Assembly (NCBI RefSeq): GCF_900637975.1 | Contig: NZ_LR134477.1 | Location: forward strand, 1,984,001 to 2,048,000 | DNA: 64,000 nt | Origin: Actinomyces viscosus | GTDB lineage: Bacteria > Actinomycetota > Actinomycetes > Actinomycetales > Actinomycetaceae | Reading direction: 5' to 3' | Shown: positions 37,769-63,062 of the stretch, piece after piece | How the letters are laid out: each line of letters starts with the position of its first letter | Position numbering within the stretch: the stretch's first letter is position 1 | Translations under genes and position numbers: made by a program | The notes under the pieces: generated by a model | What the model was told of the DNA's origin: nothing | The model's input: only the letters and a program-made list of their open reading frames with translations | Database searches by the model: none

Positions 37769-37895
37769 TTTTGTCCGTATGGGACGACTTTGAAGCCCCA
37801 GCGGCCAGGAGCCGCCACGGCAAAACGCTCTGACCAGCACACATGCAAACACGCCTCAACGAGAGCGTCGTCAAAGTCGTCCCTCCTGGACATTT
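37769..37895. other. Structured intergenic element, copy X (127 bp)
   Basis: The ends are inverted: TTTTGTCCG-x-x-x-GGACGACTTTGA and TCAAAGTCGTCC-x-x-x-GGACATTT. Inside are a hairpin GCGGC-cagga-GCCGC (37801-37815) and the 18-base core CAAAACGCTCTGACCAGC (37821-37838). The same element, inverted, lies at 62934-63062 with the same ends, the same core and a hairpin of different sequence but the same position. It could be a small structured RNA or a MITE. The name Actinomyces-1 RNA motif exists for a structured RNA of this genus, but I cannot confirm identity. Confidence 0.6.
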
Positions 37896-38019
37896 CTCGC
37901 CCCGCAGACGCCAGCCCACCCGCTCGGCGCCCGAACACAGCCTCTCGGTATCTTCTAACAGTCTTGGCTCGCCAGCCCACCCGCTCGGCGCCCGAACCGG
38001 CCCGTGCGAGAATCGAGGC

Positions 38020-38352
38020 GTGAGCTCCGAGATGAACCCCGGCCCGTACTCCGACCAGTACCCAGACGAGTACTCAACCCAGAACAGCCCTTACTCAGGG
38101 GCGTCGGCATCGTCGGCGTCCTCCGGCGACCGTGCCTCCGGCGCCAATGAGGACGTCGCCTCGCTCAGCTACGAGCGGGCCCGCGAGGAGCTGGTGGCCG
38201 TCGTGCAGCGCCTCGAGGCGGGCTCCGTCCCTCTGGAGGACTCCCTGGCCCTGTGGGAGCGCGGCGAAGCCCTGGCCCAGCGCTGCCAGACCTGGCTCGA
38301 TGACGCCCGCGCCCGCCTGGCCGCGGTCGCACAGGACGACTCCGACGACTGA
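38020..38352 (+). CDS. xseB: Exodeoxyribonuclease VII small subunit
   Basis: A 110-residue product. The conserved part is the last ~65 residues: SLSYERAREELVAVVQRLEA, GSVPLEDSLALWERGEALAQ, then RCQTWLDDARARLA. This is the XseB helical hairpin (LxFEEALxELExIVxxLE and PLEExLxxYExG). The first ~40 residues are Ser/Pro/Tyr-rich and not conserved. GTG 38020 is likely; ATG 38032 is an alternative. It binds the XseA coiled coil. Normally next to xseA, here separated by the islet. Confidence 0.93.
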   Translation: MSSEMNPGPYSDQYPDEYSTQNSPYSGASASSASSGDRASGANEDVASLSYERAREELVAVVQRLEAGSVPLEDSLALWERGEALAQRCQTWLDDARARLAAVAQDDSDD

Positions 38353-38603
38353 CAGGAACTGACAGAGACCGACAAGGACGAGACACGCCCGGAGAGCAGC
38401 GCAGGGTCGGTAGTCTGTCCGCATCCGCCCGCCCGCCTCCTCCGGCCCCATCGACTAGCTCGCCGATCACCTCCGGGAGGACCGCGCCGCCGCGGCCTCC
38501 TCTGATGACCATCCCCCAGTCCGTCCAAGCTTCTTCATCTCTCGCCCCCGTCTCACCTCAACCCACAGCCACCGGACCCCGGTCCCGCACAAAGGAGTCA
38601 CCC

Positions 38604-39545
38604 ATGACCGCACCTGGCCGTCAAGGATCCGCCCTCGTCATCGGCGAGGCCCTGGTCGACGTCGTCATCCACCCCGGGCAGAAGCCCGTGGACATCCCCG
38701 GCGGCTCGCCCGCCAACGTCGCCCTGGGGCTGGCGCGCCTGGGCCGCGACGCCGAGCTGCACTGCTGGATCGGCACCGACGAGCGCGGCAGGGCGGTGCG
38801 CGCCCACCTGGAGGCCTCCGGGGTCCGGCTGGCTCCGGGCTCCGACGGCGCCGCGCGCACCTCGACGGCGCAGGCCACCATCGGTGAGGACCGAGCCGCC
38901 ACCTATGTCTTCGACCTGGACTGGAACCCGCCGCGCCCCGCACTGGCCGACGGCGCCGCGCCGCTGCTGGTCCACACCGGGTCGATCGCCGCGATCCTCT
39001 CCCCCGGCGCCGCCACCGTGGAGCAGGTGCTGCGCGAGACCCGCGCCACCTCCACCATCGCCTACGACCCCAACGCCCGCCCCCAGCTCATGGGCGAGCC
39101 GGAGGACGCCCGCCAGATCGTTGAGCGCCTCGTGGGCCTGTCCGACCTGGTCAAGTGCTCGGACGAGGACATCGCCTGGCTCTACGGCGAGGACGCGTAC
39201 CTGGAGACGGTGCTGCGCTCCTGGCTGGAGAAGGGCGCGGCCGTCGTGGTCGTCACGCGCGGCAAGGACGGCGCCCTGGCCCTGTCCGCCTCCGGGGTGC
39301 GCCTGGAGGTGCCCGCCGACCCGAGCGTCGTCGTGGCCGACACGGTCGGCGCCGGCGACTCCTTCATGGGCGGTCTGGAGGACGCCCTGTGGAGCGAGGA
39401 CCTCGTGGGCGCGGACCGGCGCGAGGCGCTGCGCGCGGTGGACGCCGAGACCCTGGAGCGGATCGTGCGCCATGCCGCGGCCATCGCCGACATCACGGTC
39501 TCACGGGCCGGGGCCAACCCGCCCACCCGCGACGAGCTGGCCTGA
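38604..39545 (+). CDS. PfkB-family carbohydrate kinase (fructokinase-like)
   Basis: A 313-residue ribokinase-fold kinase. GGSPANVALGLARLGRDAEL is the N-terminal PfkB signature. DTVGAGDSFMGGL near residue 250 is the C-terminal signature with the catalytic Asp and anion hole. It phosphorylates a sugar, most likely fructose judging by overall resemblance to bacterial fructokinases. ATG 38604 has AAAGGAG nine bases upstream. It is probably monocistronic, followed by a hairpin at 39620-39656. Confidence 0.88.
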   Translation: MTAPGRQGSALVIGEALVDVVIHPGQKPVDIPGGSPANVALGLARLGRDAELHCWIGTDERGRAVRAHLEASGVRLAPGSDGAARTSTAQATIGEDRAATYVFDLDWNPPRPALADGAAPLLVHTGSIAAILSPGAATVEQVLRETRATSTIAYDPNARPQLMGEPEDARQIVERLVGLSDLVKCSDEDIAWLYGEDAYLETVLRSWLEKGAAVVVVTRGKDGALALSASGVRLEVPADPSVVVADTVGAGDSFMGGLEDALWSEDLVGADRREALRAVDAETLERIVRHAAAIADITVSRAGANPPTRDELA

Positions 39546-39619
39546 GGCCGATCTCCCGCCTGCTCGGCGGGGACATTCCACACGTCCGGGTGCGTCCACG
39601 AACTCGGCGGGGACATCTC

Positions 39620-39656
39620 ACGCCGTCGGGTGCAGGATTTCTGTCCCCGACGGCGT
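39620..39656. terminator. Hairpin between convergent pfkB-type and AEC genes
   Basis: ACGCCGTCGGG and CCCGACGGCGT form an 11-bp perfect stem with a 15-nt loop. It lies inside a larger mirror of GGGGACA/TGTCCCC motifs (39569-39692). It probably terminates both converging transcripts; no U-run. Confidence 0.6.
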
Positions 39657-39713
39657 CGAACGTCCCCGCCCACGAGAGACTGTCCCCGCCGGTGGAACGG
39701 CGCTGGGGCAGGC

Positions 39714-40676
39714 TCAGCGCAGGATCGCGGCGGCGAGCAGGACCACGGGCACGAATCCGGCGGTCGTCAGCAGGACCGCGTCACGGGCCAGGTCCTTGCC
39801 CACCCCGTAGCGCGAGGCGTACATGAACACGTTCTGCGCGGTGGGCAGGGCGGCGGTGACGACCGGGACGAGCAGCTGCGCCCCGCCGAGGCCTGCGGCC
39901 AGCCCGACGACGACGGCCAGCCCCGGCATGACGGCCAGCTTCCAGGCCACGGCCAGCCACAGTCCGCTGCGCCTGTTCATGCTTTGCCCCGGCCGGTCCG
40001 ACTCGGGGTCCTGGAGCGGCTTGGGCGCCCCGGCCAGGCTCATGCCCAGGGCCAGCATCATGAGCGGCACCGCGACGCGCCCGAGCATCTCCAGGCCCTG
40101 GGCCGGGTAGCCCCCGCACCAGTCCTCCAGGTTCACCCCGACCAGGTTCGCGGCGGTCCCGGCCACGACGCCCCACAGCAGCGGGTTGCGCAGCGGAACG
40201 GTCAGGGTCGCCAGGCGTGACGGGTTGCCTCGGCGGGTGACGGCGTCGAGCACGGTGAAGGTGACGGGGGTCAGTACGAGGAGCTGGAGCAGGAGGATCG
40301 GGGCGATCGTGGCCGCATCCCCCAGGACGAGGACGGCCACCGGGATCCCCAGGTTCGCGGCATTGACGTAGCCGGAGGCCAACGCCCCGATCGTGGCCTC
40401 AGCGGTGGCGTGCCGCAGCACGAGGCGGTGCAGGCACCAGGCGGAGACGATGGCGGCGAGCTCCGCGGCCACGGCCACGGCGGTGGCCCGTGAGACGACG
40501 GCGGTGAGGTCGGCCCGGCTCAAGGTGGTCACGAGCAGCACCGGCGTGGCGGCGAAGAAGCAGACGCGGGTGAGGACCCCGTCGGCGTCGGCGGGCACGG
40601 CCCGGGTGCGCACCAGCAGCCAGCCGACGGCGATGACAGCGCCGAAGACGGCCAGCCCCGCCACGACGTCGGCCAT
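39714..40676 (-). CDS. AEC-family transporter (auxin efflux carrier fold)
   Basis: A 320-residue protein with about ten membrane helices in two inverted halves. Conserved points include YVNAANLGIPVAVLVLGD (broken helix of half 1), PVTFTVLDAVTRRG, NPLLWGVVAG and ALPTAQNVFMYASRYG near the C-terminus, as in AEC/MdcF permeases. Members carry malate, malonate or unknown organic acids. ATG 40676 (with CAGGGGG upstream) is better placed than GTG 40682. Alone between two intergenic hairpins; the substrate cannot be predicted. Confidence 0.9.
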   Translation of the reverse strand: MADVVAGLAVFGAVIAVGWLLVRTRAVPADADGVLTRVCFFAATPVLLVTTLSRADLTAVVSRATAVAVAAELAAIVSAWCLHRLVLRHATAEATIGALASGYVNAANLGIPVAVLVLGDAATIAPILLLQLLVLTPVTFTVLDAVTRRGNPSRLATLTVPLRNPLLWGVVAGTAANLVGVNLEDWCGGYPAQGLEMLGRVAVPLMMLALGMSLAGAPKPLQDPESDRPGQSMNRRSGLWLAVAWKLAVMPGLAVVVGLAAGLGGAQLLVPVVTAALPTAQNVFMYASRYGVGKDLARDAVLLTTAGFVPVVLLAAAILR

Positions 40677-40751
40677 AGCCACCCCCTGTCATCAGCCGTC
40701 CTGACAGCGATGATAGTTCGAAGACAGGAGGGAGGGCCGCCCGGTCTCGAG

Positions 40752-40812
40752 TTCGTAGGGTAGGTCGCGCGTTCGAGGGGTAGAGGGTACGACCGCGCGC
40801 CTTACCCTACGA
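40752..40812. repeat. Imperfect intergenic palindrome
   Basis: GTTCGTAGGGTAGGTCGCGCG is answered by the near-complement GCGCGCCTTACCCTACGAC. The motif TACGACCGCGCG occurs twice in the right half. It lies between the AEC start and the end of the endonuclease/phosphatase gene and may act as a terminator or be another repeat family. Confidence 0.45.
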
Positions 40813-40855
40813 CCGCGCGGGCGAGGAGCGGCCGGAGGAGCGGCAGCAGGGACCG

Positions 40856-41854
40856 CTAGCCGACCGGTTCGAGGTCCACCCAGGTGCCGACGTGGTCGGA
40901 GATGATGAAGGAGGCCGTCCCCCATTCCACGGCGCGCAGCAGCGGGCCTCCACCCCCTTCCGAGCCTGCGGCGGCTGCGGCGGCCACGGCCGCCTCGTCC
41001 GACAGCGGCAGGCCGTCGGGGCCGGTGGGCCACAGGTCGGTCAGGACGTGGTCGATGCGCCGCGTGGGGCCGGCGGCGGGGAAGGTGAGCCCCTCCCCCA
41101 CGGTTCGTCCCAGCCCCAGGGCACCGACCTGCTCGGCGCTGAGGTTGTAGTCGCCCACGAGCAGGTGCGGTCCGGGCAGCCCCGCCAGCGCCCCCCAGGC
41201 GGCGGCGAGCTGGCGAGCGGCCATGGAGCCGCGGGTCGCCAGGTGCGTGGAGGCGACCGACAGCTGTCGGACCGGGCCGCCGACCTCCTCGGGCAGGTCG
41301 AGGGTGGCGGCCACCATGACGCGGTGGGAGGCGGTGGACACGTGGTAGGAGCGCGGGTCCCAGGCGCGCTCGCCGCGCTTCTCGACGCTGGAGGCCCCGC
41401 GCCCCAGGCGCTTGACGTGCCAGCCGGCGGCCGGGAAGCGGGAGATGAGGGCGTTGCCGTAGCCGATCGGCCCGGCCCCGACGGCGGCGCGCAGCAGCCC
41501 GAAGACGTCGTCGGTCGGCGAGCTCAGCGCGCTGCGCAGCGGACGGCGGCGCAGGCCCACGACCGGCCCCGCGTAGCTGGCGGCGAAGCGGCAGGTGGGC
41601 ATCCCCAGCTCCTCGGCCAGGAAGGCGGCCTGGTTCAGGCGCCCGGAGCGGGCCTGGCCCAGGTCCACCTCCTGGAGGGCGACGACGTCGGGGGCCAGCT
41701 CGGCGATCTGCTCGGCCGTGGCCCGCATGACGGCGCGGGCGGTGGCCGGGTCGGAGATGTCGGCGCCGGCCAGCGAGCCGGTGGCGGCGCTGCCGTCCCC
41801 GGCCCCGGCGCCGGGCAGACCGTGCTGGAGGTTGAGACTCAGGACCCGGATCAT
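40856..41854 (-). CDS. Endonuclease/exonuclease/phosphatase-family protein
   Basis: A 332-residue protein. IRVLSLNLQHGLPG, PDVVALQEVDLGQARSGRLN (QE metal ligand), STHLATRG, HLLVGDYNLSAEQV (GDxN) and IDHVL then ISDHVGTWVDL (SDH) are the EEP catalytic motifs in order. It cleaves phosphodiesters; the substrate may be nucleic acid or a phospholipid head group. No signal peptide. ATG 41854 is chosen because GAGGAGGA ends seven bases before it, while ATG 41860 would abut the ribosome site. It follows msrB by 2 bp, so they form an operon. Confidence 0.88.
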   Translation of the reverse strand: MIRVLSLNLQHGLPGAGAGDGSAATGSLAGADISDPATARAVMRATAEQIAELAPDVVALQEVDLGQARSGRLNQAAFLAEELGMPTCRFAASYAGPVVGLRRRPLRSALSSPTDDVFGLLRAAVGAGPIGYGNALISRFPAAGWHVKRLGRGASSVEKRGERAWDPRSYHVSTASHRVMVAATLDLPEEVGGPVRQLSVASTHLATRGSMAARQLAAAWGALAGLPGPHLLVGDYNLSAEQVGALGLGRTVGEGLTFPAAGPTRRIDHVLTDLWPTGPDGLPLSDEAAVAAAAAAGSEGGGGPLLRAVEWGTASFIISDHVGTWVDLEPVG

Positions 41855-41856
41855 GC

Positions 41857-42321
41857 TCATTCCTCCTCGAAGGTGAGGCTGACGGAGTTCATGCAGTAGC
41901 GCTGACCGGTGGGGGTCTGGGGGGCGTCGTCGAAGACGTGGCCCAGGTGGCTGCCGCAGGTGGCGCAACGGACCTCGGTGCGCACCATGCCGTGGGAGGT
42001 GTCGGTGCTCAGGGTGACCGCCTCAAGGCTGGAGGGGTCGTAGAAGGAGGGCCACCCGCAGTGGGAGTCGAACTTGGTGGTGGAGCGGAACAGCTCGGCG
42101 CCGCAGCCGCGGCAGCGGTAGACGCCCTCGCGGTGCTCGTCGAGCAGGGCCCCGGTGAAGGGCCGCTCGGTACCGGCCTCGCGCAGCACGTGGTACTCCA
42201 TGGGGCTCAGGGCCGCACGCCACTGCGCGTCGGTGCGCGCCGCGGCCTCCAGGTCGAGGGCCGGGGCGGAGGGCGTGGAGGTGGGCGTCGTGGACGGTTC
42301 GCCGCTCGTGTTGGTGCTCAT
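41857..42321 (-). CDS. msrB: Peptide-methionine (R)-S-oxide reductase MsrB
   Basis: A 154-residue MsrB that repairs oxidised methionine. [67 protein letters not shown] and [12 protein letters not shown] are the family blocks. Zinc is held by the two CxxC pairs, and Cys in RYCMNS is catalytic. The first ~28 residues are a Thr/Pro/Ser-rich extension. ATG 42321 is the only good start. Cotranscribed with the EEP gene downstream. Confidence 0.96.
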
Positions 42322-42467
42322 GGGCTCATCGTGCCCGCCCGACGGCGCCGGGCGAACCGCGTTCACGCAGCGAAAACGCACCCATCCGGCGGGCTGTCGG
42401 CAACGTAGCGGGGGTCCGACGGCGGCCGGCCGCACCCCAGACGGCTCTGTCAGCCCGCCGGTCCGGG

Positions 42468-43898
42468 TCAGCGCGGGCCCAGGCCCCCGCGCCGGGCGCG
42501 GTGCAGCAGGGAGCGCCCCATGGCTCGCCCGAGGGTGACGGCGCGCCGGGCCCCCCGGCCATGAGCCGCGGTCTCCCCCTCGGCCTCGGTGGCCCCGGCG
42601 CCCTCGGCGTCGTCACCGGCCGACGTGCTGGAGGCGCTGTCGGCCTCGGCCTTCTGCTTGGCGACGATCTCCTGGGCCGTGCGGGCCACTTCCTCGGGGC
42701 TGAGGTCCTGGGTGACCTCGACCTGGTCGACCTCCACGCGCGTGCGCGGCAGGGCGTAGGGGGCCTCGCGCTGCAGCCAGGTGACCAGCTCCTCGCGCAC
42801 GTAGGACTTGAGGGCGCCGACGTCGCCGGGGTTGGCCCCGGTCAGGACGACGCGCACGGTGACGTGGCCGCTGACGGCGTCGGAGACCTCCAGGGAGGCC
42901 TGCCTCCCGTCCCAGACGGTCGAGGCGGCCACGAGCCGGGCCAGCTCGGCGCGCATCGCGGCGATGGGGGCGCGCCAGTCCAGGTCCAGGGTGAAGGTGC
43001 CGGTGCTCTGGGAGCCGCCGCGCGTCCAGTTGGCGAAGGGGTTCTCGGTGAAGTGGGTCGAGGGCAGGATGAGGCGCCGCTCGTCCCAGGTCCGCATGAC
43101 CACGTAGGTCAGGGTGATCTCCTCGATGGTGCCCTGCTCGTCGTCGACGACGACGATGTCGTCCACGCGGATGGCGTCGGTGGTGGCCAGCTGGAGCCCG
43201 GCGAAGACGTTGCCCAGCGTGGAGCGGGCGGCCATACCGGCGATGACCGAGGCCAGACCGGCCGAGGCGAGCAGCGAGCCCATGGCGAGCTGAACGCTGG
43301 GGAAGGTCATGATGGCGGCGACGAGCCCGGCGATGATGATGATCACCTGGGCGACGCGCCGGATGATCTGGCTCTGGGTGGTCACCCGGTTGGCGCGTCC
43401 TTGGTTCTCGCTGGCCTGGACGCCTTTGACGACGGTGGACTCGATGGCCTTGGCGAAGGCGACGACGAGCCAGGTCACCGAAAGGATGAGGGCGATGGTC
43501 ACCCCGCGCTCGATGATGACCATCGTGGTCGAGTCTTCCTTGGTCTGTCGCAGCCCGGCCAGGGCGATCTGCGTGCCCAGGAAGGCGCCGGTCATGGCGC
43601 CGACGGCGTAGGCGGGCCGGCGCCCGAAGTCCACGATCTCGCGGTACAGGAGCCGGCGCCGGCCCATGAACCTGAGGATCGCCACGGCCACGACGGCGAT
43701 CAGGATGCCGATGAGGGCACCGGCACCGGCCTGCCAGCCGATGGTGACGAGGTCGTTGGTCGTCTTGGTGACCGCCTTGACGGTCTCGTCAACGTTCACG
43801 GACGGCACTCCGGTGGGACCGGAGGTGGGCGTGGGAGTCGGGGAGGCAGAGGGATCCGCACTGGGGGTCGCGGGAGGCGTGGTGGCTGCAAACAGCAT
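42468..43898 (-). CDS. MscS-family mechanosensitive channel
   Basis: A 476-residue protein. A short Thr/Pro-rich exterior N-terminus is followed by four or more helices. The pore helix is [21 protein letters not shown], then [20 protein letters not shown] and [28 protein letters not shown]: the MscS beta domain. The C-terminal tail is long and acidic then basic ([28 protein letters not shown]), likely cytoplasmic. It releases solutes at hypo-osmotic shock. The ATG at 43898 is used; upstream sequence is not coding. Confidence 0.9.
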
Positions 43899-44010
43899 GA
43901 GGCCAGCCTAGGCAGCGGGGCTGTGCCCGGGCTGTGACGAACGACCGCGGGCGCGATCGCACACGCTGACAACCATCACCGAGGACAAGGACGACCGAGG
44001 GCATGAGGGA

Positions 44011-44037
44011 GGCCCGGAACCTGTAAGGTTCCGGGCC
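44011..44037. terminator. Hairpin after the alpha/beta-hydrolase gene
   Basis: A 12-bp perfect stem (GGCCCGGAACCT / AGGTTCCGGGCC) around a 3-nt loop. Essentially the same hairpin recurs at 46925-46953, so it is a recurrent terminator-like module. Confidence 0.75.
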
Positions 44038-44108
44038 CCTCCTCTTGCCTCAGGGACTCGACGCCTCAGCCGACGTCGTCACCCAAGGTCTGGTCTGGCC
44101 TGCTCAGG

Positions 44109-45125
44109 TCAGGCGATGTGCTCATCGAACCAGGCGATGAGCTTCTCGGGGTGCTGGCCGAAGTAGTTGTAGACGTAGAAGCGCTGGTTGGAGTCCTCGA
44201 CCCACAGCAGCTCCTTGGTCTTCGTCCCCAGCGCGTCGAAGATCTCCTGGCCGTCCTGCTCGCCGTGGACCAGGAAGTCCCGGCGCAGCTGGGCCATGAG
44301 CGTGGGCACCTTGACCGCGTGGGCGTGCGGCAGCGGCGTCTCCTCATCCAGACGGAAGCCGACGAGGTCGCGCAGGCGCTCGCTGAGCATCTGGGCGGCC
44401 TCGGCCGGGTCCTGCCCGATGTTCTCGGCTCCGCGCTCGATGAAGGTCTTGCCCGAGACCACGTTGAGGACGGCCAGGGCCTGCACGTCGGCGAACTCCT
44501 CGGGCCAGAAGTCCATGGCGATGATGGTGGAGTTGCCTCCCATGCAGCGGCTGAACAGGCCGAGCTTCATCGAGGCCAGCTCGGGGCGGCTGCGCACGTA
44601 GCGCAGCGAGCCGACGACGTCCCGGCACTCCAGCAGGCCCAGCCCGCTGATGACACCGTTGGCGTCACTGCTCAGGCCGCAGTTGCGCAGGTCGTAGGTG
44701 AGGATGTTGTAGCCGGCGTCGTGCAGGTGGCGCAGCTCGGGCAGGAAGTCCACCTCGAAGCCGCCGAACATGGTGTTCCACGGCTCCAGGTGGCCGGGGA
44801 AGCCGTACCGGTTGCAGGTCATGGGGTGGTTGACGATGAGGAGCCGGTCGGAGTCGGCGGGAATGAACCACGCCTCCAGGGGCGTGCCGTCCATGGAGGG
44901 GAAGAAGACGTCCTCGTACTCCATGCCGACGTCGCTGGGCCGCTTGATCACCGGGGTGCGGGCTCCGTGGGCGAACATCTGCGCGTACTGCTCGACGAGC
45001 GCGTCCAGGGCCTCCCGGCCCTCGGCGCCCGTGGGCGCCTGAGTGGGGTCGGGCTCGGGGACGTCGTTCTGCCCCAGGTCCTTGTCGACGTCGATCCGGT
45101 TGCCTTGAGAGTCAAAACCGATCAT
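44109..45125 (-). CDS. Alpha/beta hydrolase with a probable Cys nucleophile
   Basis: A 338-residue protein. DGTPLEAWFIPADSDRLLIV and NILTYDLRNCGLS are core strands. The nucleophile elbow reads KLGLFSRCMGGNSTII with Cys194 in the sm-x-Nu-x-sm position, where most relatives have Ser. Dienelactone hydrolases also use Cys. VEDSNQRFYVYNYFG near the end could hold the acid, but a catalytic His is not obvious there. Substrate unknown. ATG 45125 has AGGAG nine bases upstream; ATG 45134 would overlap it. Forms a same-strand cluster with the next gene. Confidence 0.75.
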   Translation of the reverse strand: MIGFDSQGNRIDVDKDLGQNDVPEPDPTQAPTGAEGREALDALVEQYAQMFAHGARTPVIKRPSDVGMEYEDVFFPSMDGTPLEAWFIPADSDRLLIVNHPMTCNRYGFPGHLEPWNTMFGGFEVDFLPELRHLHDAGYNILTYDLRNCGLSSDANGVISGLGLLECRDVVGSLRYVRSRPELASMKLGLFSRCMGGNSTIIAMDFWPEEFADVQALAVLNVVSGKTFIERGAENIGQDPAEAAQMLSERLRDLVGFRLDEETPLPHAHAVKVPTLMAQLRRDFLVHGEQDGQEIFDALGTKTKELLWVEDSNQRFYVYNYFGQHPEKLIAWFDEHIA

Positions 45126-45245
45126 GGCGGTCATCTCCTGCGATCTTCTCAGTGGTGAAACATGGGCGGCTGAACCGATGGCGGACCAGCCGGGAGCGGG
45201 GAGAGGGCAGAGGGGAGCAGGCGGAGTGCCCGGCGACTCGAAGGC

Positions 45246-45875
45246 TCACATGAAGGACGGCTTGGGGCCGTCCGTGCCGGGCTTGTTGACGCCGAGGTTC
45301 GTGCGGGCGAAGCGCTGGGGCTCCTCCAGGGCCTCGACGACGACCGCGGCGACGCTGCGCCGGGAGACCTCCGTGCCCTTGAACTGCTCGTCGCGGCCGG
45401 TGGTCTCGTAGTCGAGCTCGTCGGCGTTGGTGAGCCAGGCCGGCCGCAGGATGGTGTAGTCGAGGTCGGAGGCCTCGATGACGTCGGCCGCCGCGCGGTA
45501 GCGGACCAGCTCCTGACCGATCATCGCGTCGTTCCAGGACTCGAAGGGCTCGGGCAGCTCGTGGTAGATCCCCAGGGAGGTGACGAACACCAGGGGCTTG
45601 ATGCCGAGCTCGTCCATGACCGAGACGATCACGCGGGCCTGCTCGTCGACGGGTCCGGACAGGTTGGCGTAGACGGCGTCGGCTCCCCGCATCGCCTCAG
45701 TGAGCGCGGGGGCGTCGAGGACGTCGGCCTCGACCACGCTGGCTCCGGCAGATACAGAGGCCACTCGTGAGGCGCTGCGCACCACGAGGGCCAGCTCGTG
45801 CCCGCGCTCGGCCAGCATCTCGACGGCGTGGCGAGCGATCTGCCCGCCTGCGCCCAGAACCACGATCCTACTCAT
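45246..45875 (-). CDS. NAD(P)-binding atypical SDR (NmrA/YwnB-like)
   Basis: A 209-residue Rossmann protein. IVVLGAGGQIARHAVEMLAE is the GxGGxxA nucleotide motif of atypical short-chain dehydrogenases. LALVVRSASRVASV, GADAVYANLSGP, VFVTSLGIYHELPEP and LDYTILRPAWLTNADELDYE follow the NAD(P)H-binding/NmrA-like pattern. It may sense redox state or reduce small substrates. AAAGGAG precedes ATG 45875. It diverges from an XRE/MmyB-type regulator, the classic arrangement for that regulator group and its SDR target. Confidence 0.87.
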   Translation of the reverse strand: MSRIVVLGAGGQIARHAVEMLAERGHELALVVRSASRVASVSAGASVVEADVLDAPALTEAMRGADAVYANLSGPVDEQARVIVSVMDELGIKPLVFVTSLGIYHELPEPFESWNDAMIGQELVRYRAAADVIEASDLDYTILRPAWLTNADELDYETTGRDEQFKGTEVSRRSVAAVVVEALEEPQRFARTNLGVNKPGTDGPKPSFM

Positions 45876-45900
45876 CAGCACTCCTTTGCAGTCTTCAACC

Positions 45901-45975: not shown

Positions 45976-46021
45976 ATTGCGATCCCCTGGATAAAAACAG
46001 ACGGCCACGTACAGTGCTGAT

Positions 46022-46953: not shown

Positions 46954-46960
46954 CTCGCAG

Positions 46961-56028: not shown

Positions 56029-56111
56029 GGAGACGAGCAGGAGAACCCGGGCGGTCACCGCCCGGCCCGCTCGATCCACCCGGAACCGGATTACTCACGG
56101 AACCACTCACC

Positions 56112-56159
56112 CCGGCGCCCCGGCCTGTCCCCCTCAGTGGGGACCGACCGGGGCGCCGG
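56112..56159 (+). terminator. Hairpin after the FtsX-type permease
   Basis: A 12-bp perfect stem CCGGCGCCCCGG / CCGGGGCGCCGG, with a second small stem GTCCCC/GGGGAC inside the loop. It lies 84 bp after the permease stop and separates the two ABC operons. No U-run. Confidence 0.65.
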
Positions 56160-56229
56160 CGCGCTATCTCCCATCTCACCGGTTCTCCCTCTGCCGCACC
56201 CGCCCCGGCTCCGATAGCCTCGTGCGATC

Positions 56230-58167
56230 ATGCCCGAGCCGTCCACCCGGTCGTTCCGGAACGCCCCGAACAGCCCGTCCGCACTGTCCTCGCCGTCGAT
56301 GAGCCCCGACGCCCCGCTGCCCCAGCCCCCGTCCATCGGGGCCGGGGCTCTTCTGCGGTGGCTGCTGCGCCGCGCCGCCGTCCCGGTCGCGCTGGCGACC
56401 CTGGCGGCCTGCACCTCCAACATCATCCAGGCGATCGTGCCGGCCTTCCTGGGCCAGGCCCTCGACGCCGGGATCGAGAACGGCCTCAACGCCCGCGTCT
56501 GGGGGATCGGGGCGCTGCTGCTGGTGCTGTTCGTCGTTTACGCCGTCGGGGACACGATGCTGTCCTACTTCGGGGTGACGGCCTGGATGCGCACGGCCTT
56601 CGACGTCGACCGGCTCGTGGGCCGGCAGGTCTCCGCCACCGGCAAGGACCTGTCCCGGCAGGTCTCCACCGGCGAGGTCGCCACCATCATCGCCTCCGAC
56701 GCCGACTACCTGGGCAATCTCATCGAGCACCTGCCGGCCCTGCTGGGGGCGGCGGCCAGCTTCATCGTCGTGGCCGTCCTCATGCTCCGCACCTCGGTGA
56801 GCCTGGGGCTGGTGGTCATCCTGGGCATGCCGCTGGTGGCGGCGATCGTCACCCTGGTCATCCGCCCCCTGCAGAAGCGTCAGGCCGTCCAGCGCGAGGC
56901 GCAGTCCGCCGTCACCACGATCACCACCGACACGGTGGCGGGCCTGCGGATCCTGCGGGGCATCGGCGGGGAGGACGTCTTCGCCCGCCGCTACCGGGAC
57001 GCCTCCCAGGAGCTGCGGCGCCGCGGCGTCGAGGTGGCCTCCTCCCAGGCCACCCTCATGACCCTCCAGGTGCTGCTGCCCGGGCTCTTCGCCGCCGTCG
57101 TCGTGTGGATCGCCGCCCGCATGGCCGTGGCCGGCAGCCTCACCCCCGGCGGGCTCATCACCTTCTACGGCTACACCGCCTACCTGTCCTGGCCGCTGTG
57201 GGTCTTCACCAACTCCGTGCAGGACTACACCCGGGCCATCGTCGGGGCCCGGCGCCTGAGCCGCCTGCTGCAGGTGACGCCGGCGGCCGGCAGCCTCGTG
57301 GAGCGCCTCGACCTGGACCCCGCCGCCGCCCAGCCCCTCAGCGGTGAGCTGGTGGACACCGGAAGCGGTCTGCGCCTGGAGGAGGGCCGCATGACGGCCC
57401 TGGTGTGCCCGGACCCGGAGGTCTCAGCCGAGCTGGCCACGCGCCTGGGCCGCTTCACCGACTCCGGGCCCACCGTCACCCTGGCGGGCAGGCCGCTGAC
57501 CACCATGCCGCTGGACCAGGTGCGCGCCAGCATCGTCGTGGCCGGGGCGACCGCCCAGCTCTTCACCGGGACCCTGCGCGAGGCCCTTGATGTGCGCGGC
57601 GGTCCCGACCCGCGGCCGGCGGACCTCAAGGAGCTCGTGCGCGCCGAGGCCGAGCGCACCACCGGGGCCGACGTCGACCAGCAGGTCCGCGCCCAGGAGC
57701 GCCACGCGCCCGGCGACGACCGCCTGCTGGAGGCCATCGAGATCGCCGACGCCGGCGACGTCCTGACCTCGCTCAGCGAGGGCCTGGCCGGGATGATCAC
57801 CGAGAAGGGCCGGTCCCTGTCCGGCGGGCAGCGCCAGCGCGTCGCCCTGGCCCGGGCCCTGCTCACCGAGGCCCCCACGCTCGTGCTCATCGAGCCGACC
57901 TCCGCCCTGGACTCCCACACCGAGGCCCGGGTCGCCAACCAGGTGCACCGCTCCCGCGCCGGGCGCACCACCGTCGTCGTCACCGCCTCCCCGCTGGTGC
58001 TGGAGGCCTGCGACGAGGTCGTCTTCCTGGACTCCAGCGGGACCGAGCTCCTGCGCTCCACGCACCGCGAGCTCATGGCGATGGCCCGCTCCGGCGACGC
58101 GCAGGCGGCCGACTACCGCGCCGTCGTCTCCCGGGCCCTGGGCGAGGACGCGGAGGTGAGCTGCTGA
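56230..58167 (+). CDS. ABC exporter half-transporter, degenerate nucleotide site
   Basis: A 645-residue membrane-ATPase fusion. Six helices (~35-350; [20 protein letters not shown] and [16 protein letters not shown] [20 protein letters not shown]) precede the NBD. Where Walker A should lie the sequence is [17 protein letters not shown], without GxxGxGKS. Walker B is [12 protein letters not shown], lacking the Asp, and the H-loop His is replaced (VVTASPLVL). The signature [16 protein letters not shown] is perfect. It therefore serves as the non-hydrolysing half of a heterodimer with the next gene, whose start overlaps its stop (TGATG). Substrate unknown; drug or peptide export is likely. Confidence 0.9.
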
Positions 58168-59897
58168 TGGCGCTCCCCGTCGCACCCGGACCGGTCGCCC
58201 TGCGCAAGACCTTCCGGATCATGGCCTCCTACCGGTGGCGCTTCGCCGTCGTGCTGGCCCTCCAGATCGTGGCCGTCCTGTCCACGCTCGTGGCCCCCCA
58301 GCTGCTGGGGCGCCTGGTGGGGCGGGTCTCGGCCGGGCGGGCCGACGCCGGCTACGTGGACCGGATCGTGCTGACCATCATCGCCGTCACCCTCGTGGGG
58401 GCGCTCATCAACCGCTTCGCCCAGAAGTACGCCCGGACCCTGGGCGAGTCGGTCTTCGCCGACCTGCGCGAGCGCATGATGAACCGGGTGGTGCACCTGC
58501 CGCTGAGCGCCGTGGAGTCCGCCGGCACCGGCGACCTCGTGGGGCGCACCACCACCGACGTCTCCCGGATCGAGTTCCTCGTGCGCGTGGGCATCCCCCA
58601 GATCCTCGTGTGCCTGGTGACGATCGTCTTCACCCTGCTGGCGGCGGCCTTCGCCGACCCGGTCCTGGCGCTCGGGCTGCTCGTCATCGCCCCGCCGGTG
58701 TGGTCGATGATGCGCTGGTACCTGCCGATCTCCATCCCCGCCTACCGGGCCGAGTCGGCCGCCCAGGCCCGCCTCAACGGCGCGGTCTCCGAGACGGTCG
58801 AGCACGCCGAGACCGTGGACGCGCTGGGCATCGGGGCGCGCCGCGAGCGGGCCATCATGGCCTCCATCAAGGAGGCCTGGTCCCTGGAGCGTTACACGGC
58901 GATGCTGCGGGTGCGCCTGTTCATGGTGCTCGACGTCGCCTGGCGGGCGCCCGTCGTCGTCATCCTCCTGTGGGGCGGGTTCCTGGCGGCCCGCGGCTAC
59001 GCGCCCCTGGGGGCGATCACCACCGTGACGCTCTACGCGATGGAGCTGCGCAAGCCGGTGGGCCAGCTCATGTTCTGGATCGACCAGGTCCAGATCGCCC
59101 AGGCCTCCCTGTCCCGCATCCTGGGTGTTGAGGAGGTCCCCGACGACCGCGCCCCCACCGGTGAGCAGCCCGACGGCACGCGGATGGTGCTCGACGACGT
59201 GCGTTTCTCCTACCGGGAGGGCGTCGAGGTGCTCCATGGGATCGACCTGGAGCTCGTGCCCGGGGAGCGGCTGGCCGTCGTCGGGCCCTCCGGCTCGGGC
59301 AAGTCGACGCTGGGGCGCATGCTGGCGGGCATCAACCCGCCCACCTCCGGGAGCGTCACCGTGGGCGGGGTGGCGCTGACCGACCTCACCGAGGACGAGC
59401 TGCGCCGCCACGTGGCCCTGGTGACCCAGGAGCACCACGTGTTCGTCGGGTCCGTGGCGGACAACGTGCGCCTGGGGCGCCCGGGCGCCTCCGACGACAC
59501 GATCCGCGAGGCGATCGAGGCCATCGGGGCCGACGCCTGGGTCGATGAGCTGCCCGAGGGGATGGACACGATGGTCGGCTCGGGGCACCTGAGCCTCACG
59601 CCGGCCCAGGCCCAGGAGGTGGCGCTGGCCCGGCTGGTGCTGCTGGACCCGCACACGCTCATCCTGGACGAGGCCACCTCGCTGCTGGACCCGCGCGCCG
59701 CGCGCACCCTGGAGCGGACCCTGTCCACGGCGCTGGCCGGGCGCACCGTCATCGAGGTGGCCCACCGCCTCTACACGGCGCAGGACGCCGACCGGGTCGC
59801 CGTCGTCATGGACGGGCGGATCGTGGAGCTGGGCACCCATGACGAGCTCGTGGCGCTCGGCGGGGAGTACGCGAGCCTCTGGCAGGCCTGGAACTAG
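58167..59897 (+). CDS. ABC exporter half-transporter, catalytic partner
   Basis: A 576-residue membrane-ATPase fusion. Six helices are followed by an NBD with intact Walker A (VVGPSGSGKSTLGRMLAG, near residue 375), Walker B LILDEATSLLD and H-loop VIEVAHRLY. Its signature is LSLTPAQAQEVALARL instead of LSGGQ. Together with the preceding protein it forms one canonical site (its Walker A/B with the partner's LSGGQ) and one fully degenerate site, as in heterodimeric exporters of the TM287/288 or BmrCD type. The start overlaps the partner's stop by one base, ensuring coupled synthesis. Confidence 0.92.
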   Translation: MALPVAPGPVALRKTFRIMASYRWRFAVVLALQIVAVLSTLVAPQLLGRLVGRVSAGRADAGYVDRIVLTIIAVTLVGALINRFAQKYARTLGESVFADLRERMMNRVVHLPLSAVESAGTGDLVGRTTTDVSRIEFLVRVGIPQILVCLVTIVFTLLAAAFADPVLALGLLVIAPPVWSMMRWYLPISIPAYRAESAAQARLNGAVSETVEHAETVDALGIGARRERAIMASIKEAWSLERYTAMLRVRLFMVLDVAWRAPVVVILLWGGFLAARGYAPLGAITTVTLYAMELRKPVGQLMFWIDQVQIAQASLSRILGVEEVPDDRAPTGEQPDGTRMVLDDVRFSYREGVEVLHGIDLELVPGERLAVVGPSGSGKSTLGRMLAGINPPTSGSVTVGGVALTDLTEDELRRHVALVTQEHHVFVGSVADNVRLGRPGASDDTIREAIEAIGADAWVDELPEGMDTMVGSGHLSLTPAQAQEVALARLVLLDPHTLILDEATSLLDPRAARTLERTLSTALAGRTVIEVAHRLYTAQDADRVAVVMDGRIVELGTHDELVALGGEYASLWQAWN

Positions 59898-60307
59898 GAG
59901 TAGTGCACCGGCGAGGGTGAGGGTGAAGGTGAGGCTTCCGGGCTGCGGCCTGCGGCCAGGTACTCGCTGACCGAGCTACTCCACGAGCCTCGGGTCCCAC
60001 TGGCCAGGGGTTAACCGCACTGCACGGGGGTCCGACCCACGTGGAGTGCCCCCACACCTCTCCCAGTAGGATCCAGACCTCGTGCAGCCGGTGCAGCCGG
60101 CGCAGCCGAGGTCTCCACCGCAGATCGCCGGTGGCGAAAGGCAGGCCTCATTCAGCAAACCTACAAACCCGCCCGGGCCTGCGTTGTTCCACGATGGCGC
60201 GCGCTGTGAGATTCTTGGGTCGGCGGGTCGTCCCACTGTCGCGATCCCGCCGCCTGGCAGTCAGTCGGCTGCACCCAACGCTGCACCTCACACGAGAAGG
60301 TCCGTTC
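59898..60307. other. Intergenic region before the holin-like operon
   Basis: About 410 bp without a supportable gene. GTGCAGCCG, GTGCAGCCG and GCGCAGCCG repeat in tandem at 60082-60108. The ribosome site AGAAGG for the next gene lies near its end. A promoter is expected but not fixed. Confidence 0.35.
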
Positions 60308-60793
60308 ATGCCCAACAACCAGCCACCTCCCCCGCCGTCGCAGGCGACGCCGTCGGCCTCCGCCGTGCCTCCTCGGGGGACCAACGGGTCCCAGCCCACG
60401 CTCGGTGAGCTCATCGCCCGTATCTCGGAGAACATCTCAGCGCTGGTGCGCGGCGAGATCGACCTGGCCAAGGCCAAGGGCCAGCGCATGGCCAAGGAGA
60501 TGGGCCTGGGGGCCGGGCTGCTCGGTGCCGCCGGGGTCCTGACCCTGTTCGCCTTCGGGCTGCTGCTGGGGTCGCTGACGTCGGGGCTGTCCAACGTCAT
60601 GCCGCTGTGGGCTGCCTTCCTCGTGGTGGCGCTGCTCCTCATCGTCATCGCCGTGCCGCTGGCCCTGGTGGGCGTCAAGCGGCTCCAGGCGGCCAAGGAG
60701 AGCGCCCCCACGCCGCAGGAGGGGCTCATGGAGTCGGTCAACACCGTCAAGGGCGCCGTCGCCTCCGGCCTGGAGAGGGGGAACGCCAAGTGA
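60308..60793 (+). CDS. Phage holin family protein (Phage_holin_3_6 / DUF1469)
   Basis: A 161-residue protein. A Pro/Ser/Gln-rich leader precedes the family core: LIARISENISALVRGEIDLA, KAKGQRMAKEMGLGAGLLGA, then two helices (AGVLTLFAFGLLLGSLTSGL; LWAAFLVVALLLIVIAVPLA). The amphipathic helix followed by two membrane helices defines the group. Despite the name, these are chromosomal envelope proteins in Actinobacteria, usually beside DUF3618 genes as here. ATG 60308 has AGAAGG upstream. It overlaps the next gene by 4 bases (GTGA). Confidence 0.88.
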   Translation: MPNNQPPPPPSQATPSASAVPPRGTNGSQPTLGELIARISENISALVRGEIDLAKAKGQRMAKEMGLGAGLLGAAGVLTLFAFGLLLGSLTSGLSNVMPLWAAFLVVALLLIVIAVPLALVGVKRLQAAKESAPTPQEGLMESVNTVKGAVASGLERGNAK

Positions 60794-61254
60794 GCACCAA
60801 CGCAGTACCCGCGCCCGCAGAGCCGTCCGCTGACGCCGTCCTGTCCGACATGGAGGCCCGGCGCCGGGCGCTGGCCGCCGACGTCGACGAGCTCGCCGCG
60901 CGCCTGGCCCCGAACAGCCTGGCCAGGGTCGCCAAGCTCAAGGCCCGCGAGACGGTGCAGGGCCTGCGCAACCAGGCCGTCAGCAAGGCCGAGGACGCGG
61001 TCGGGCAGGTCAAGAGCCGTCTGGCCTCCCTGGTCGGTGGGGGCACCGACCCCGACGGCGGGGTCGACTCCTACGAGCCGGGCACGATGACCCTCGGCCA
61101 GCGGGTCACCCGCCTGTTCGACGACGCCCGCGACGGCGACCCCGCCTCGCTGGGGATCGTCACGGTCGCGGGCCTGGCGCTGGCCGGCCTGAGCGTCACG
61201 GCCACCGTCGCCGCGGTCAAGGCCTTCTCCCGCTCCCGGGCGGCCCGGCCATGA
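60790..61254 (+). CDS. DUF3618 protein
   Basis: A 154-residue protein. DMEARRRALAADVDELAARL is the DUF3618 signature (I-x-x-x-R-x-x-L-A-x-x-V-D-x-L). A helical segment and one C-terminal membrane helix (GIVTVAGLALAGLSVTATVA) follow. GTG 60790 overlaps the holin-like gene, and its stop overlaps the next start (ATGA). Probably part of a membrane or envelope-stress complex with its neighbours; molecular role unknown. Confidence 0.85.
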   Translation: MSTNAVPAPAEPSADAVLSDMEARRRALAADVDELAARLAPNSLARVAKLKARETVQGLRNQAVSKAEDAVGQVKSRLASLVGGGTDPDGGVDSYEPGTMTLGQRVTRLFDDARDGDPASLGIVTVAGLALAGLSVTATVAAVKAFSRSRAARP

Positions 61255-61682
61255 CCAGCGGCTCGCAGGCCGACGCGTCCGGTGCCGGTGGCGCTGGCGG
61301 CGCTGGCGGCGCCGAGGAGACCGGCGCCGAGCCGCTGAGCCCCGAGCAGATCGAGGAGCGGCTGCGCGCCCAGCGGGTGGCTCTGGCGGCGAGCGTTGAC
61401 GAGCTCGCGGCCCGGGTGGACCCGCGCACCCAGGCGCGGGAGGCCGGCGAGCACCTGCGCGAGCAGGCCACGGCGAGGGCCGACCAGCTGCGCGAGCAGG
61501 CTGCGGCCGGCGCCGGTCGGTTGCGTGAGGAAGCCCGCAGGCTGGCCGAGCAGGCCGAGCAGACCTGGGAGAGCGCCCGTCAGGGCGACGCCGAGGCGAC
61601 CTCCGCGCTCGCCAAGGCGGCCGCCGTCGCCGGAGGCGTGGTGACCGCCGGCATCCTCCTGACCCGCCTCGCCCGCCGCTGA
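61251..61682 (+). CDS. Second DUF3618 protein
   Basis: A 143-residue paralog of the preceding product. A Gly/Ala-rich leader, then LSPEQIEERLRAQRVALAAS and VDELAARVDP (DUF3618), a long coiled coil rich in Arg, Glu and Ala, and a final membrane helix (AAAVAGGVVTAGILLTRLAR). The ATG overlaps the previous stop by four bases. Its last five codons, stop and following DNA are duplicated at 62681 beyond the NYN gene. Confidence 0.85.
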   Translation: MTSGSQADASGAGGAGGAGGAEETGAEPLSPEQIEERLRAQRVALAASVDELAARVDPRTQAREAGEHLREQATARADQLREQAAAGAGRLREEARRLAEQAEQTWESARQGDAEATSALAKAAAVAGGVVTAGILLTRLARR

Positions 61683-61833
61683 GGCAGGGGCCGGCCGCCT
61701 CGCAGGCATCGGCGGCCCCACAGGCATCGGCCCCCTCGCGGACAGCGGCCTCATCCCCGTCGCGGACGCACCATAGGGCCCGGCGACTCACCTTAGTGGG
61801 TCAGCCCGCAAGCCCTATGGTGCGTCCGCGCGC
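61668..61833. repeat. Direct repeat left of the NYN islet, containing palindromic repeat copy 3
   Basis: 166 bp similar to 62681-62827 (147 bp), differing by a ~19-bp indel and a few bases. It starts in the last five codons of the DUF3618 gene. It ends with the palindromic element 61761-61830, whose 19-bp arms (CGCGGACGCACCATAGGGC) are perfect. Confidence 0.88.
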
Positions 61834-61984
61834 CAGGCATGTGATGAGGACAGTGATATCACCGCGGTGGTCCGAGACCGAGCTCGTGAGAGCACACGCC
61901 TACCATCGAACAACTATGTGATGTGAAGCACACATGCGTTATCTGGTCAAGCACGCAGAGAACCTCTAATCTGTACCCATAACT

Positions 61985-62019
61985 CCCCGCCGTCCTCCGG
62001 GACTGGCGGGGTCTATTTT
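61985..62019 (+). terminator. Intrinsic terminator or attenuator in the leader of the NYN gene
   Basis: CCCCGCC-gtcctccgggact-GGCGGGG with an inner GTCC/GGAC stem is followed at once by TCTATTTTTCTTT, a rare true U-tract for this genome. It lies just before GTAGGAGG and the GTG start. A TAATCT-like -10 (about 61969-61974) would put it inside the 5' leader, so attenuation is possible; alternatively it ends upstream transcripts. Confidence 0.65.
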
Positions 62020-62038
62020 TCTTTGTAGGAGGCTACTC

Positions 62039-62677
62039 GTGGCCCTCACAATGGCGGTCATCGTTGACTACCAGAACGTCCATCTCACGGCGGCAGGCTT
62101 GTACATGCCAGGGCGTCCTCCCGAGGAAGCCCTCATCGACCCCTACCGGTTTGCCAGCCAGCTTGCCTGCGCCCGTAACGCGAAGAACGACGATGCCTAC
62201 CAGGTCAAGGTCTCTAGAGTTGAGGTCTTTCGGGGCCTACCGATCCCGGAGGATGACAGCGATGCATACCGGCGTAACCAAGCCCAGAAGGCACAGTGGA
62301 CCCGAGGGCATCACGGAGTAGTCAACGTGACGCTGCGACCGCTGAAGTACTCATGGGAGTACATCGATGGAGTCAAGCAACCTATCCGCGCATCGAGACA
62401 AGAAAAGGGCGTCGATGTCCTATGCGCCTTGACGCTCGTCGACTTGGCTCGCTGCGGCATGTACGACGTCGTGGTTCTCGCCTCCCGGGACACAGACCTC
62501 GCTCCAGCCCTCGACAACGCTGCCCGAACTGGCAGCGCCAAAGTCGAAGCAGCTAAGTGGTACCACCCTGGAGTCTCTAGCACGCGAGGCCGCATCAAGA
62601 CCGAACGCCGACTGTGGACCACTTCCATGACGGAGCAGCACTTTCACTCCAGCCTGGACCCGATCGACTACACCTGA
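62039..62677 (+). CDS. NYN domain (PIN-like) ribonuclease-like protein
   Basis: A 212-residue protein. MAVIVDYQNVHLTAAGLYMP carries the first acidic residue (Asp plus N of the DxxN motif). EKGVDVLCALTLVDLARCGM gives the second Asp. VVVLASRDTDLAPALDNAAR supplies SxDxDL, the family's third acidic cluster. This is the full NYN/LabA-like catalytic set, so RNA cleavage is likely. GTG 62039 has GTAGGAGG. Codon use is less GC-biased than the neighbours, and direct repeats bracket the gene, both signs of transfer. It could be a defence or toxin-like nuclease; no antitoxin is seen. Confidence 0.85.
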   Translation: MALTMAVIVDYQNVHLTAAGLYMPGRPPEEALIDPYRFASQLACARNAKNDDAYQVKVSRVEVFRGLPIPEDDSDAYRRNQAQKAQWTRGHHGVVNVTLRPLKYSWEYIDGVKQPIRASRQEKGVDVLCALTLVDLARCGMYDVVVLASRDTDLAPALDNAARTGSAKVEAAKWYHPGVSSTRGRIKTERRLWTTSMTEQHFHSSLDPIDYT

Positions 62678-62680
62678 TAT

Positions 62681-62827
62681 CTCGCCCGCCGCTGAGGCGG
62701 AGGGCGGCCCCTCGCAGGCATCGGCCCCCTCGCGGACAGCGGCCTCATCCCCGTCGCGGACGCACCATCAGGCCCAGCGACTCACCTCTGTGGGTCAGCC
62801 CGCAAGCCCTATGGTGCGTCCGCGCGC
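62681..62827. repeat. Direct repeat right of the NYN islet, containing palindromic repeat copy 4
   Basis: Second copy of the DUF3618 3' end and following DNA. It includes the palindromic element at 62755-62824 (right arm intact; left arm differs at two bases). A further partial copy of the right arm (GGTGCGTCCGCGCGC) occurs at 62876-62890. Confidence 0.88.
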
Positions 62828-62933
62828 TACGGGACTCCGCTCTGCCCGCCGACCGCCTTCATCACGTGCAAGCCGGTGCGTCCGCGCGCTCCGGGCGATC
62901 CGTCGAGGACGTGCACCAGCGGGGCATCGGCGC

Positions 62934-63062
62934 AAAAGTGTCCGCCAGGGACGACTTTGACAGCGTCATCTTCGAAGGACTCTCGCATCTGCGCTGGTCA
63001 GAGCGTTTTGGGCCGGCGGCGCCGGCCCGCGGCGGCTTCAAAGTCGTCCCTGACGGACAAAA
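62934..63062. other. Structured intergenic element, copy Y (129 bp, inverted relative to copy X)
   Basis: Reverse-complement relative of 37769-37895. The ends GGGACGACTTTGA and TCAAAGTCGTCCC are kept. The core GCTGGTCAGAGCGTTTTG (62993-63010) is identical to that of copy X. The hairpin GGGCCGGC-ggc-GCCGGCCC (63010-63028) replaces the other copy's stem with different bases that still pair. As with copy X, a palindromic repeat lies within about 110 bp on its left. Confidence 0.6.

What the first reader, a model, noticed from the sequence alone, without database searches (positions are those of the whole stretch)
37769..63062. Structured ~128-bp element with conserved core and a compensating hairpin (37769-37895 and 62934-63062)
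Two copies in opposite orientation share inverted ends (GGACGACTTTGA), an identical 18-base core (CAAAACGCTCTGACCAGC) and a hairpin in the same place whose stem is GCGGC/GCCGC in one and GGGCCGGC/GCCGGCCC in the other. Pairing kept while bases change suggests selection on RNA or DNA structure. Each lies close to a copy of the palindromic repeat family. It may be a small RNA (perhaps related to the Actinomyces-1 motif name) or a MITE.
Basis: partly seen in the sequence, partly recalled or inferred. Interest (0 to 1): 0.8.

Follow-up and report, generated by a model that had tools for sequence, protein, structure and literature searches.

The report
Paired-arm DNA repeats of Actinomyces
The two look-alike stretches belong to a family of small non-coding DNA repeats scattered through Actinomyces chromosomes, whose two mirror-image ends stay matched to each other while differing between species, which points to an unknown DNA-handling protein more than to an RNA.

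Summary
The two copies, their inverted ends and the 18-base core are real. The genome holds 13 copies with exact ends and one with other ends; relatives occur in 21 of 49 genus genomes. The claimed compensating hairpin fails: in 10 orthologues of copy 1 it pairs in 42% of cells. What covaries is the pair of terminal arms (15 of 22 pairs with two-sided changes). Lengths fall into classes about one helical turn apart. At nine orthologous sites the arms are 89-100% identical, the interior 58-84%. No transposase-bearing copy was found in the 12 genomes scanned with fitting arm patterns, and no integron integrase in 49. Close near-identical copies seen so far share orientation and bracket toxin-antitoxin, nuclease-like or other genes. 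Best reading: a miniature, non-autonomous mobile DNA element whose arms are sites of an unidentified recombinase-like protein and still selected. Against it: no such protein, no target duplication, and a mild G-U over A-C excess in the arms (55 v 34), mostly in one genome, which leaves a folded strand possible. Boldest reading: sites of an undescribed cassette system.

The parts
37772..37892 (+). element copy 1 (121 bp, TGTCC to GGACA; core on + strand)
   Evidence: the site is filled in 10 genomes compared, own genome included
37772..37793 (+). copy 1 left arm TGTCC-GTAT-GGGACGACTTTGA
37871..37892 (-). copy 1 right arm, inverse of the left arm apart from the four free bases
37821..37838 (+). 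copy 1 core CAAAACGCTCTGACCAGC
37801..37815 (+). copy 1 interior hairpin GCGGC/GCCGC; not conserved in orthologues
   Evidence: folds; rejected as conserved
62939..63059 (-). element copy 2 (121 bp; core on - strand)
   Evidence: full orthologue in G045, truncated one in G023
62939..62960 (+). copy 2 arm (low-coordinate end)
63038..63059 (-). copy 2 arm (high-coordinate end)
62993..63010 (-). copy 2 core
63010..63028 (-). copy 2 interior hairpin GGGCCGGC/GCCGGCCC, seen also in the 94% identical copy at G000 2068876 with one change
38020..38352 (+). gene downstream of copy 1: exonuclease VII small subunit (PF02609)
62039..62677 (+). gene upstream of copy 2: NYN-domain protein
63187..64000 (+). 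start of a DrmD-like SNF2 helicase gene (GTG start taken from the G023 orthologue; runs out of the window), first gene of a block between copy 2 and its sister copy 22 kb away

Best explanation
[quoted passage not shown] Each is a dispersed, non-coding unit of about 122 bp (or 122 plus about one, two or three helical turns) made of two inverted 22-bp arms and a central core (near CTGACCTG). The arms are inferred to be binding sites, most likely as duplex DNA on one face of the helix, for a trans-acting recombinase- or transposase-like protein that has not been found; the core may be a third contact. Shown: the anatomy, the narrow spacing, arm covariation, arm conservation in place, dispersal, presence and absence between species, near-identical same-orientation copies around other genes. 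Inferred: the protein, the duplex mode, that it moves or recombines the elements, and that direct copies let toxin-antitoxin and other genes come and go.
For: Narrow architecture: 26 of 26 exact termini in G000 pair at 121 or 122 bp. Arm-pattern scans covered 15 genomes, 12 of them with fitting arm types; leaving out lone background matches, the pair of transposon size was G003 contig 8, an element interrupted by an IS256-type gene, and two lone exact ends in G023, one a truncated orthologue of copy 2, the other without a transposase gene in the frames listed nearby. Arms covary: 15 of 22 pairs with two-sided changes, 132 such cells against 44.6 (sd 7.0) in shuffles (35 rows picked by me from 113). 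Length classes near one turn apart. Arms 0.89-1.00 and interior 0.58-0.84 identical at 9 orthologous sites. Gain or loss: site 9 filled in G014, G053, G056 and, decayed, G051, but without intact element in G059, G005, G012; a G054 locus holds element-TA-element where G052 and G043 have 22 and 65 nt between the matched flanks; G047 has two copies 98% identical over about 152 bp in otherwise different flanks.
Against: No transposase, recombinase or autonomous copy was found. No target-site duplication could be read. G059 and G005 keep part of the right end, so these look like deletions rather than never-filled sites. With the four free bases of the G000 group left out, G-U mismatches in the arms exceed A-C, 55 v 34 when counted once per site and position (p 0.03), from G054 30 v 12 and the G000 group 11 v 9; that suits a folded single strand or RNA better than duplex DNA. 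If only movement mattered, arms at old sites should decay like the interior; that they do not needs continuing use, gene conversion or a host function. The helical steps rest on few independent changes. Site 9 in G000 has arms of another type than the other 13 copies.
Confidence: 0.45

Rival explanations
1. Fixed DNA sites for a host protein (regulator or chromosome-structuring protein) that bridges the two arms; copies persist because each works where it is.
For: Arms conserved in place while the interior drifts; one site kept in 10 genomes; length classes.
Against: No constant position relative to genes in 12 fetched G000 loci by a rough gene call of my own, and no common neighbour seen there by eye; intact copies missing at an orthologous site of close relatives; near-identical copies.
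Confidence: 0.17
2. Cassette recombination sites that work like integron attC sites: paired inverted sites, perhaps used as a folded strand; direct copies bracket gene modules, and recombination between two copies adds or removes the module.
For: Close near-identical copies share orientation in 5 of 5 G054 pairs, at the nuclease-like locus of 6 genomes and in one G047 pair. Between them: PhdYefM-like with PIN, FitA-like with PIN, VbhA, Schlafen-AlbA_2, DUF6571, a sub-threshold restriction-nuclease match, a short-chain dehydrogenase. In G001 a single element joins the outer flanks of the G011 pair and looks like a hybrid of both (by eye). G-U over A-C excess in the arms.
Against: Integron integrase model over cut-off in 0 of 49 genomes, with weak hits alike in all. 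No arrays beyond three copies within 10 kb. Most copies are single. The near-identity within pairs suggests local duplication or gene conversion; the L136 pair may be a plain tandem duplication.
Confidence: 0.17
3. Ordinary MITE family left by an extinct transposon, now neutral; arms look conserved only because copies are young or gene-converted.
For: Short, inverted ends, no coding capacity, no autonomous partner; truncated and decayed copies exist; the G000 copy at 2068876 looks converted by copy 2 over about 220 bp.
Against: At 9 orthologous sites arms are more conserved than the interiors of the same copies, which neutrality alone does not give.
Confidence: 0.13
4. A multicopy structured RNA with a 22-bp closing stem.
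For: Strong arm covariation; 7 of 7 copies fold better than shuffles as single strands (z -3.2 to -8.9, DNA parameters); G-U over A-C 55 v 34.
Against: No Rfam match above cut-off; the G-U excess comes mostly from G054 (30 v 12), the window's own group giving 11 v 9; within a species group the arm sequence itself, not only its pairing, is shared by dispersed copies; interior hairpin not kept.
Confidence: 0.08

Closest known systems
MITEs (miniature inverted-repeat transposable elements)
   Same: Short, non-coding, terminal inverted repeats, dispersed, no own transposase
   Different: No partner transposon found; no target duplication read; arms conserved in place; arm types differ between species groups; narrow length classes; conserved core
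REPINs and RAYT transposases (PMC3116915: abstract and outline read; PMC3733652: passages read)
   Same: Two inverted units around a spacer, dispersed outside genes
   Different: Arms of 22 bp that are not REP stem-loops with a GTAG end; narrow length; 14 copies in G000 and 31 model matches in G054. RAYT presence not tested
Integron attC sites and gene cassettes (PMC2727003: start of abstract in a search listing)
   Same: Two inverted sites per element, structure kept more than sequence, copies around toxin-antitoxin and other modules
   Different: No integron integrase found; no long arrays; conserved sequence at the ends and in the core
pdif / dif modules of Acinetobacter (PMC6449649: abstract and outline read)
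   Same: Adaptive genes between recombination sites
   Different: pdif sites are much shorter (recalled: about 28 bp, XerC/XerD arms) and mainly on plasmids; these elements are about 122 bp, and those of G000 are chromosomal
Actinomyces-1 RNA motif (PMC8191799 and PMC12510878 seen in a search listing only)
   Same: Genus name
   Different: No Rfam family matched the elements above cut-off

Membership tests
MITE | short non-coding element with terminal inverted repeats, dispersed copies | tested here: met
MITE | related autonomous transposon with the same ends | tested here: not met
   none in 12 genomes scanned with fitting arm patterns. Three more (G014, G053, G012) gave 2, 0 and 3 background-like matches, so they were not really tested; other arm types were not scanned
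MITE | target-site duplication at insertion | tested here: inconclusive
   empty-like sites too diverged or with residual ends
REPIN | inverted REP units ending in GTAG or CGTC | tested here: inconclusive
   one arm type contains CGTC, but the arms are not short stem-loops of the size given in PMC3733652; compared by eye only
REPIN | RAYT (Y1) transposase in the genome | not tested
integron attC / cassette | integron integrase encoded in the genome | tested here: not met
   TIGR02249 over cut-off in 0 of 49 genus genomes
integron attC / cassette | array of cassettes separated by attC sites | tested here: not met
   copies dispersed; the densest place seen is three within 10 kb in G054 (512-522 kb, the third a weak match)
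integron attC / cassette | conserved GTT/AAC triplets (recalled) at the cleavage site | tested here: not met
   ends are TGTCC in 35 of 35 and GGACA in 33 of 35 aligned copies
structured RNA (any Rfam family, incl. Actinomyces-1 if held) | covariance-model match above cut-off | tested here: not met
   whether that family is in the library was not checked
structured RNA | transcript | not testable with these tools
   no RNA data
pdif module | dif-like XerC/XerD binding arms | not tested
   no dif comparison was run

The most novel reading that the evidence does not exclude
An undescribed cassette-trafficking system of oral Actinomyces: attC-like sites with two arms at set helical phase, read by a recombinase unlike integron integrases whose specificity drifts between species and drags both arms of each site along; direct site pairs hold toxin-antitoxin and defence-type modules that enter and leave by recombination between sites.
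Probability: 0.15. Interest if true: 0.85.

Novelty: new variant of a known kind. Interest (0 to 1): 0.5.

Why it matters
If the arms are sites of a living recombinase, oral Actinomyces carry an unnoticed route for gain and loss of toxin-antitoxin and defence-type genes. Even if it is only a MITE, a family whose two ends change together between species while staying matched at old genomic sites is a natural experiment on how a DNA-binding protein changes specificity, and the arm types are ready-made bait to find that protein.

Tried and rejected
Compensating interior hairpin: rejected. Known RNA family: none above cut-off. IS256-type transposase as partner: rejected, it sits inside a copy whose two parts lie on both sides. 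Integron integrase as partner: rejected for the 49 genus genomes. Phage origin: no exact G000-type arm pair in viral contigs; other arm types not scanned there. Plasmids: two partial matches (32% of the query) in Pseudonocardia. Link with the palindromic repeat: 2 of 12 loci. The 22-kb gene block between copy 2 and its sister as a cassette: weakened, because block genes adjoin the same flanking region in G023, G045, G050, G058, G010 and G003, while the element at that end was found in G003 and G000 only (one arm-scan hit in G011 there is of another sequence).

'No strand bias' in the arms: my first count (71 G-U, 68 A-C) included four free bases of the G000 group; without them and once per site and position it is 55 v 34. 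I lowered the main reading from 0.50 to 0.45, raised RNA from 0.05 to 0.08 and the cassette rival from 0.15 to 0.17.

Literature (open-licence library only, listings unless said): Actinomyces with 'miniature inverted-repeat transposable' gave one review; a cassette and repeat search gave two papers and Actinomyces oris with repeat terms two, judged unrelated by title and abstract start; 'Actinomyces-1' listings are; REPIN, integron and pdif listings.
Full report
What was checked. The two window copies are 121-bp elements at 37772-37892 (+) and 62939-63059 (-), each TGTCC-NNNN-GGGACGACTTTGA ... TCAAAGTCGTCCC-NNNN-GGACA with the same 18-base core. In the whole genome (G000, one contig, 3.49 Mb) a pattern search with up to 3 mismatches gave 34 matches: 26 exact termini forming 13 elements of 121 or 122 bp, and 8 with 3 mismatches that do not pair; none had 1 or 2. 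A later model found a 14th copy with other arms at 2367614-2367734.

Distribution. A model from 35 copies matches 21 of 49 genus genomes, own genome included (strict filters). A broader model matches 23 of 213 family genomes at E 1e-5, 21 in the genus and 2 outside; the two sets of 21 differ by one genome each way (G043 only, G005 only). The two outside the genus were not followed up. The exact G000-type arm pair occurs in 24 stretches of the collection of 84,980 species, all 24 titled Actinomyces (oris, johnsonii, naeslundii, oral taxon 170, sp. ZJ308), and in no viral contig.

Hairpin claim. Each window copy folds with an interior hairpin, but the consensus of 35 copies has none. In 10 orthologues of copy 1 the arms pair in 100% of cells and the hairpin in 42%, with a two-sided change in one sequence at one pair.

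Arms. Species groups have different arm types, with TGTCC outside and often ACTTTGA inside and about 10 variable bases between; some G007 copies begin TGTCA. Over 35 rows that I picked to span the types, 15 of 22 arm pairs show changes on both sides; 91.3% of cells pair against 76.3% in shuffles; 132 two-sided cells against 44.6 (sd 7.0), reached in 0 of 500; slid versions pair in 34-43%. Related rows inflate such counts. In the G000 group the four bases after TGTCC are free. Over 88 distinct arm pairs (102 oriented of 113 elements) there are 71 G-U and 68 A-C mismatches. Without the free bases, and once per site and position, it is 55 G-U and 34 A-C (p 0.03), G054 giving 30 and 12 and the G000 group 11 and 9 (101 elements, one false entry dropped). 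So there is a mild excess that a folded strand or RNA would give; cells are not independent. Both ends of a DNA element changing together also look like covariation, so the arms by themselves show neither RNA nor DNA.

Spacing. Of 143 distinct elements found by an arm scan of the loci fetched, 114 are 120-123 bp, 21 are 131-135, 4 are 142-145, 2 are 154, and one each 103 and 173; the scan on shuffled letters gave 5 hits in 1.14 Mb, so some are false. Classes about one helical turn apart suit two protein contacts on one face of a duplex. Independent changes are few, and those of G047 come from a repeated unit of about 11 nt.

Conservation in place. At 9 sites with 3 to 13 copies each, the 13-bp inner arm is 0.89-1.00 identical, TGTCC 0.93-1.00, the core window 0.79-0.97, the interior 0.58-0.84 and the aligned flanks 0.46-0.88. 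These are 9 of the 16 groups, chosen by me; site 1 pools both copies of a pair, in some groups (5, 8) members share one flank only, and two entries were dropped from their groups (a false hit in site 2, an unlike copy in site 7), so the flank figure is no clean neutral yardstick. At site 9 G014 and G056 hold the element at the same place with different arms, while both arms of each copy largely match; G051 holds a decayed copy; G053 has a different left flank. G006, G000, G003 and G023 have a copy of another arm type in the same interval.

Gain and loss. Site 9 is filled in G014 and lacks the intact element in G059, whose flanks are 98-99% identical; G059 keeps the right end, so deletion is likely; G005 keeps a shorter remnant and G012 none. 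Of 45 genomes with a match there, I read the interval in 12. In G054 an element-TA-element unit lies between what I read as amino-acid transporter genes (not scanned); the matched flanks are 22 nt apart in G052 and 65 nt in G043, while G024 and G040 hold other sequence.

Pairs and what they hold. Close, near-identical copies share orientation in 5 of 5 G054 pairs; 5 such short gaps among 31 matches are unexpected (P 0.0026 by simulation). Paired copies share 96-121 of 122 positions in 11 pairs (5 of G054 and the same locus in 6 genomes), against a median interior identity of 0.59 among 29 G054 copies; by eye, shared sequence stops at one end of the element and runs on about 10-27 nt at the other in most; L133 shows neither, and L136 may be a tandem duplication. 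In G047 a pair shares about 152 bp around a short-chain dehydrogenase gene. Pfam for the G054 pairs: PhdYefM (below cut-off) with PIN, FitA-like RHH with PIN, VbhA, Schlafen-AlbA_2, DUF6571; at the six-genome locus one of two proteins scanned has a sub-threshold restriction-nuclease match, the other none. In G001 a single element joins the outer flanks of that locus. An inverted neighbour pair in G007 has members of different arm types.

The gene block at copy 2. Copy 2 and a 94% identical copy 22 kb away lie on either side of genes for a DrmD-like helicase, a type IIG-like methylase, a reverse-transcriptase-type protein and a UvrD-type helicase, with a very long frame between. The homology between the copies spans 220 bp and the far copy differs from its G003 counterpart, so gene conversion is likely. 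The block adjoins the same flanking region in six other genomes, with the far element in one of them; it is not shown to be a cassette. G023 has a truncated orthologue of copy 2.

Partner protein. Arm patterns were scanned in 15 genomes, 12 with fitting arms. Apart from lone background-like matches, what did not pair was the G003 copy split by an IS256-type gene and two lone exact ends in G023. The integron integrase model passes its cut-off in 0 of 49 genomes. RAYT transposases were not searched.

Verdict. Observation partly confirmed; the RNA reading unlikely but not excluded; a mobile or recombining DNA element best supported, with the acting protein unknown. New variant of a known kind (miniature inverted-repeat element), interest 0.5.

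Noticed in passing
window 35296-35365, 37641-37710, 61761-61830, 62755-62824: A 70-bp palindromic repeat occurs as two same-orientation pairs, one around an MFS transporter plus HTH gene, one around the NYN gene; its interior also holds GGGTCAG, recalling the element core CTGACC.
   Followed up: partly
L225:7549-9423 (G000 2055048-2056922, outside the window): One open frame of 625 aa matches a defence reverse transcriptase (RT_UG33, PADLOC) and, at its C-terminal end, a DDE transposase with HTH (Pfam): an in-frame insertion or a fusion.
   Followed up: no
G003 contig 8, L064: An IS256-family transposase gene lies inside an element copy, between one arm and the core.
   Followed up: partly
G047 elements L175-L179: Length growth to 143-154 bp comes from tandem copies of a unit of about 11 nt next to the core.
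   Followed up: no
G000 2367614-2367734; G003, G006, G023 in the same interval: A second arm type (TGTCCACGGTGGCGACTTTT in G000 and G006) sits in genomes whose other copies mostly have the GGGACGACTTTGA arm.
   Followed up: partly
window 15950-16537, 20245-20652, 20653-20952 with 21602-21901, 28580-28761 with 30411-30592: Exact or 97% identical direct repeats of 182-300 nt, the first two head to tail; likely recent duplications.
   Followed up: no
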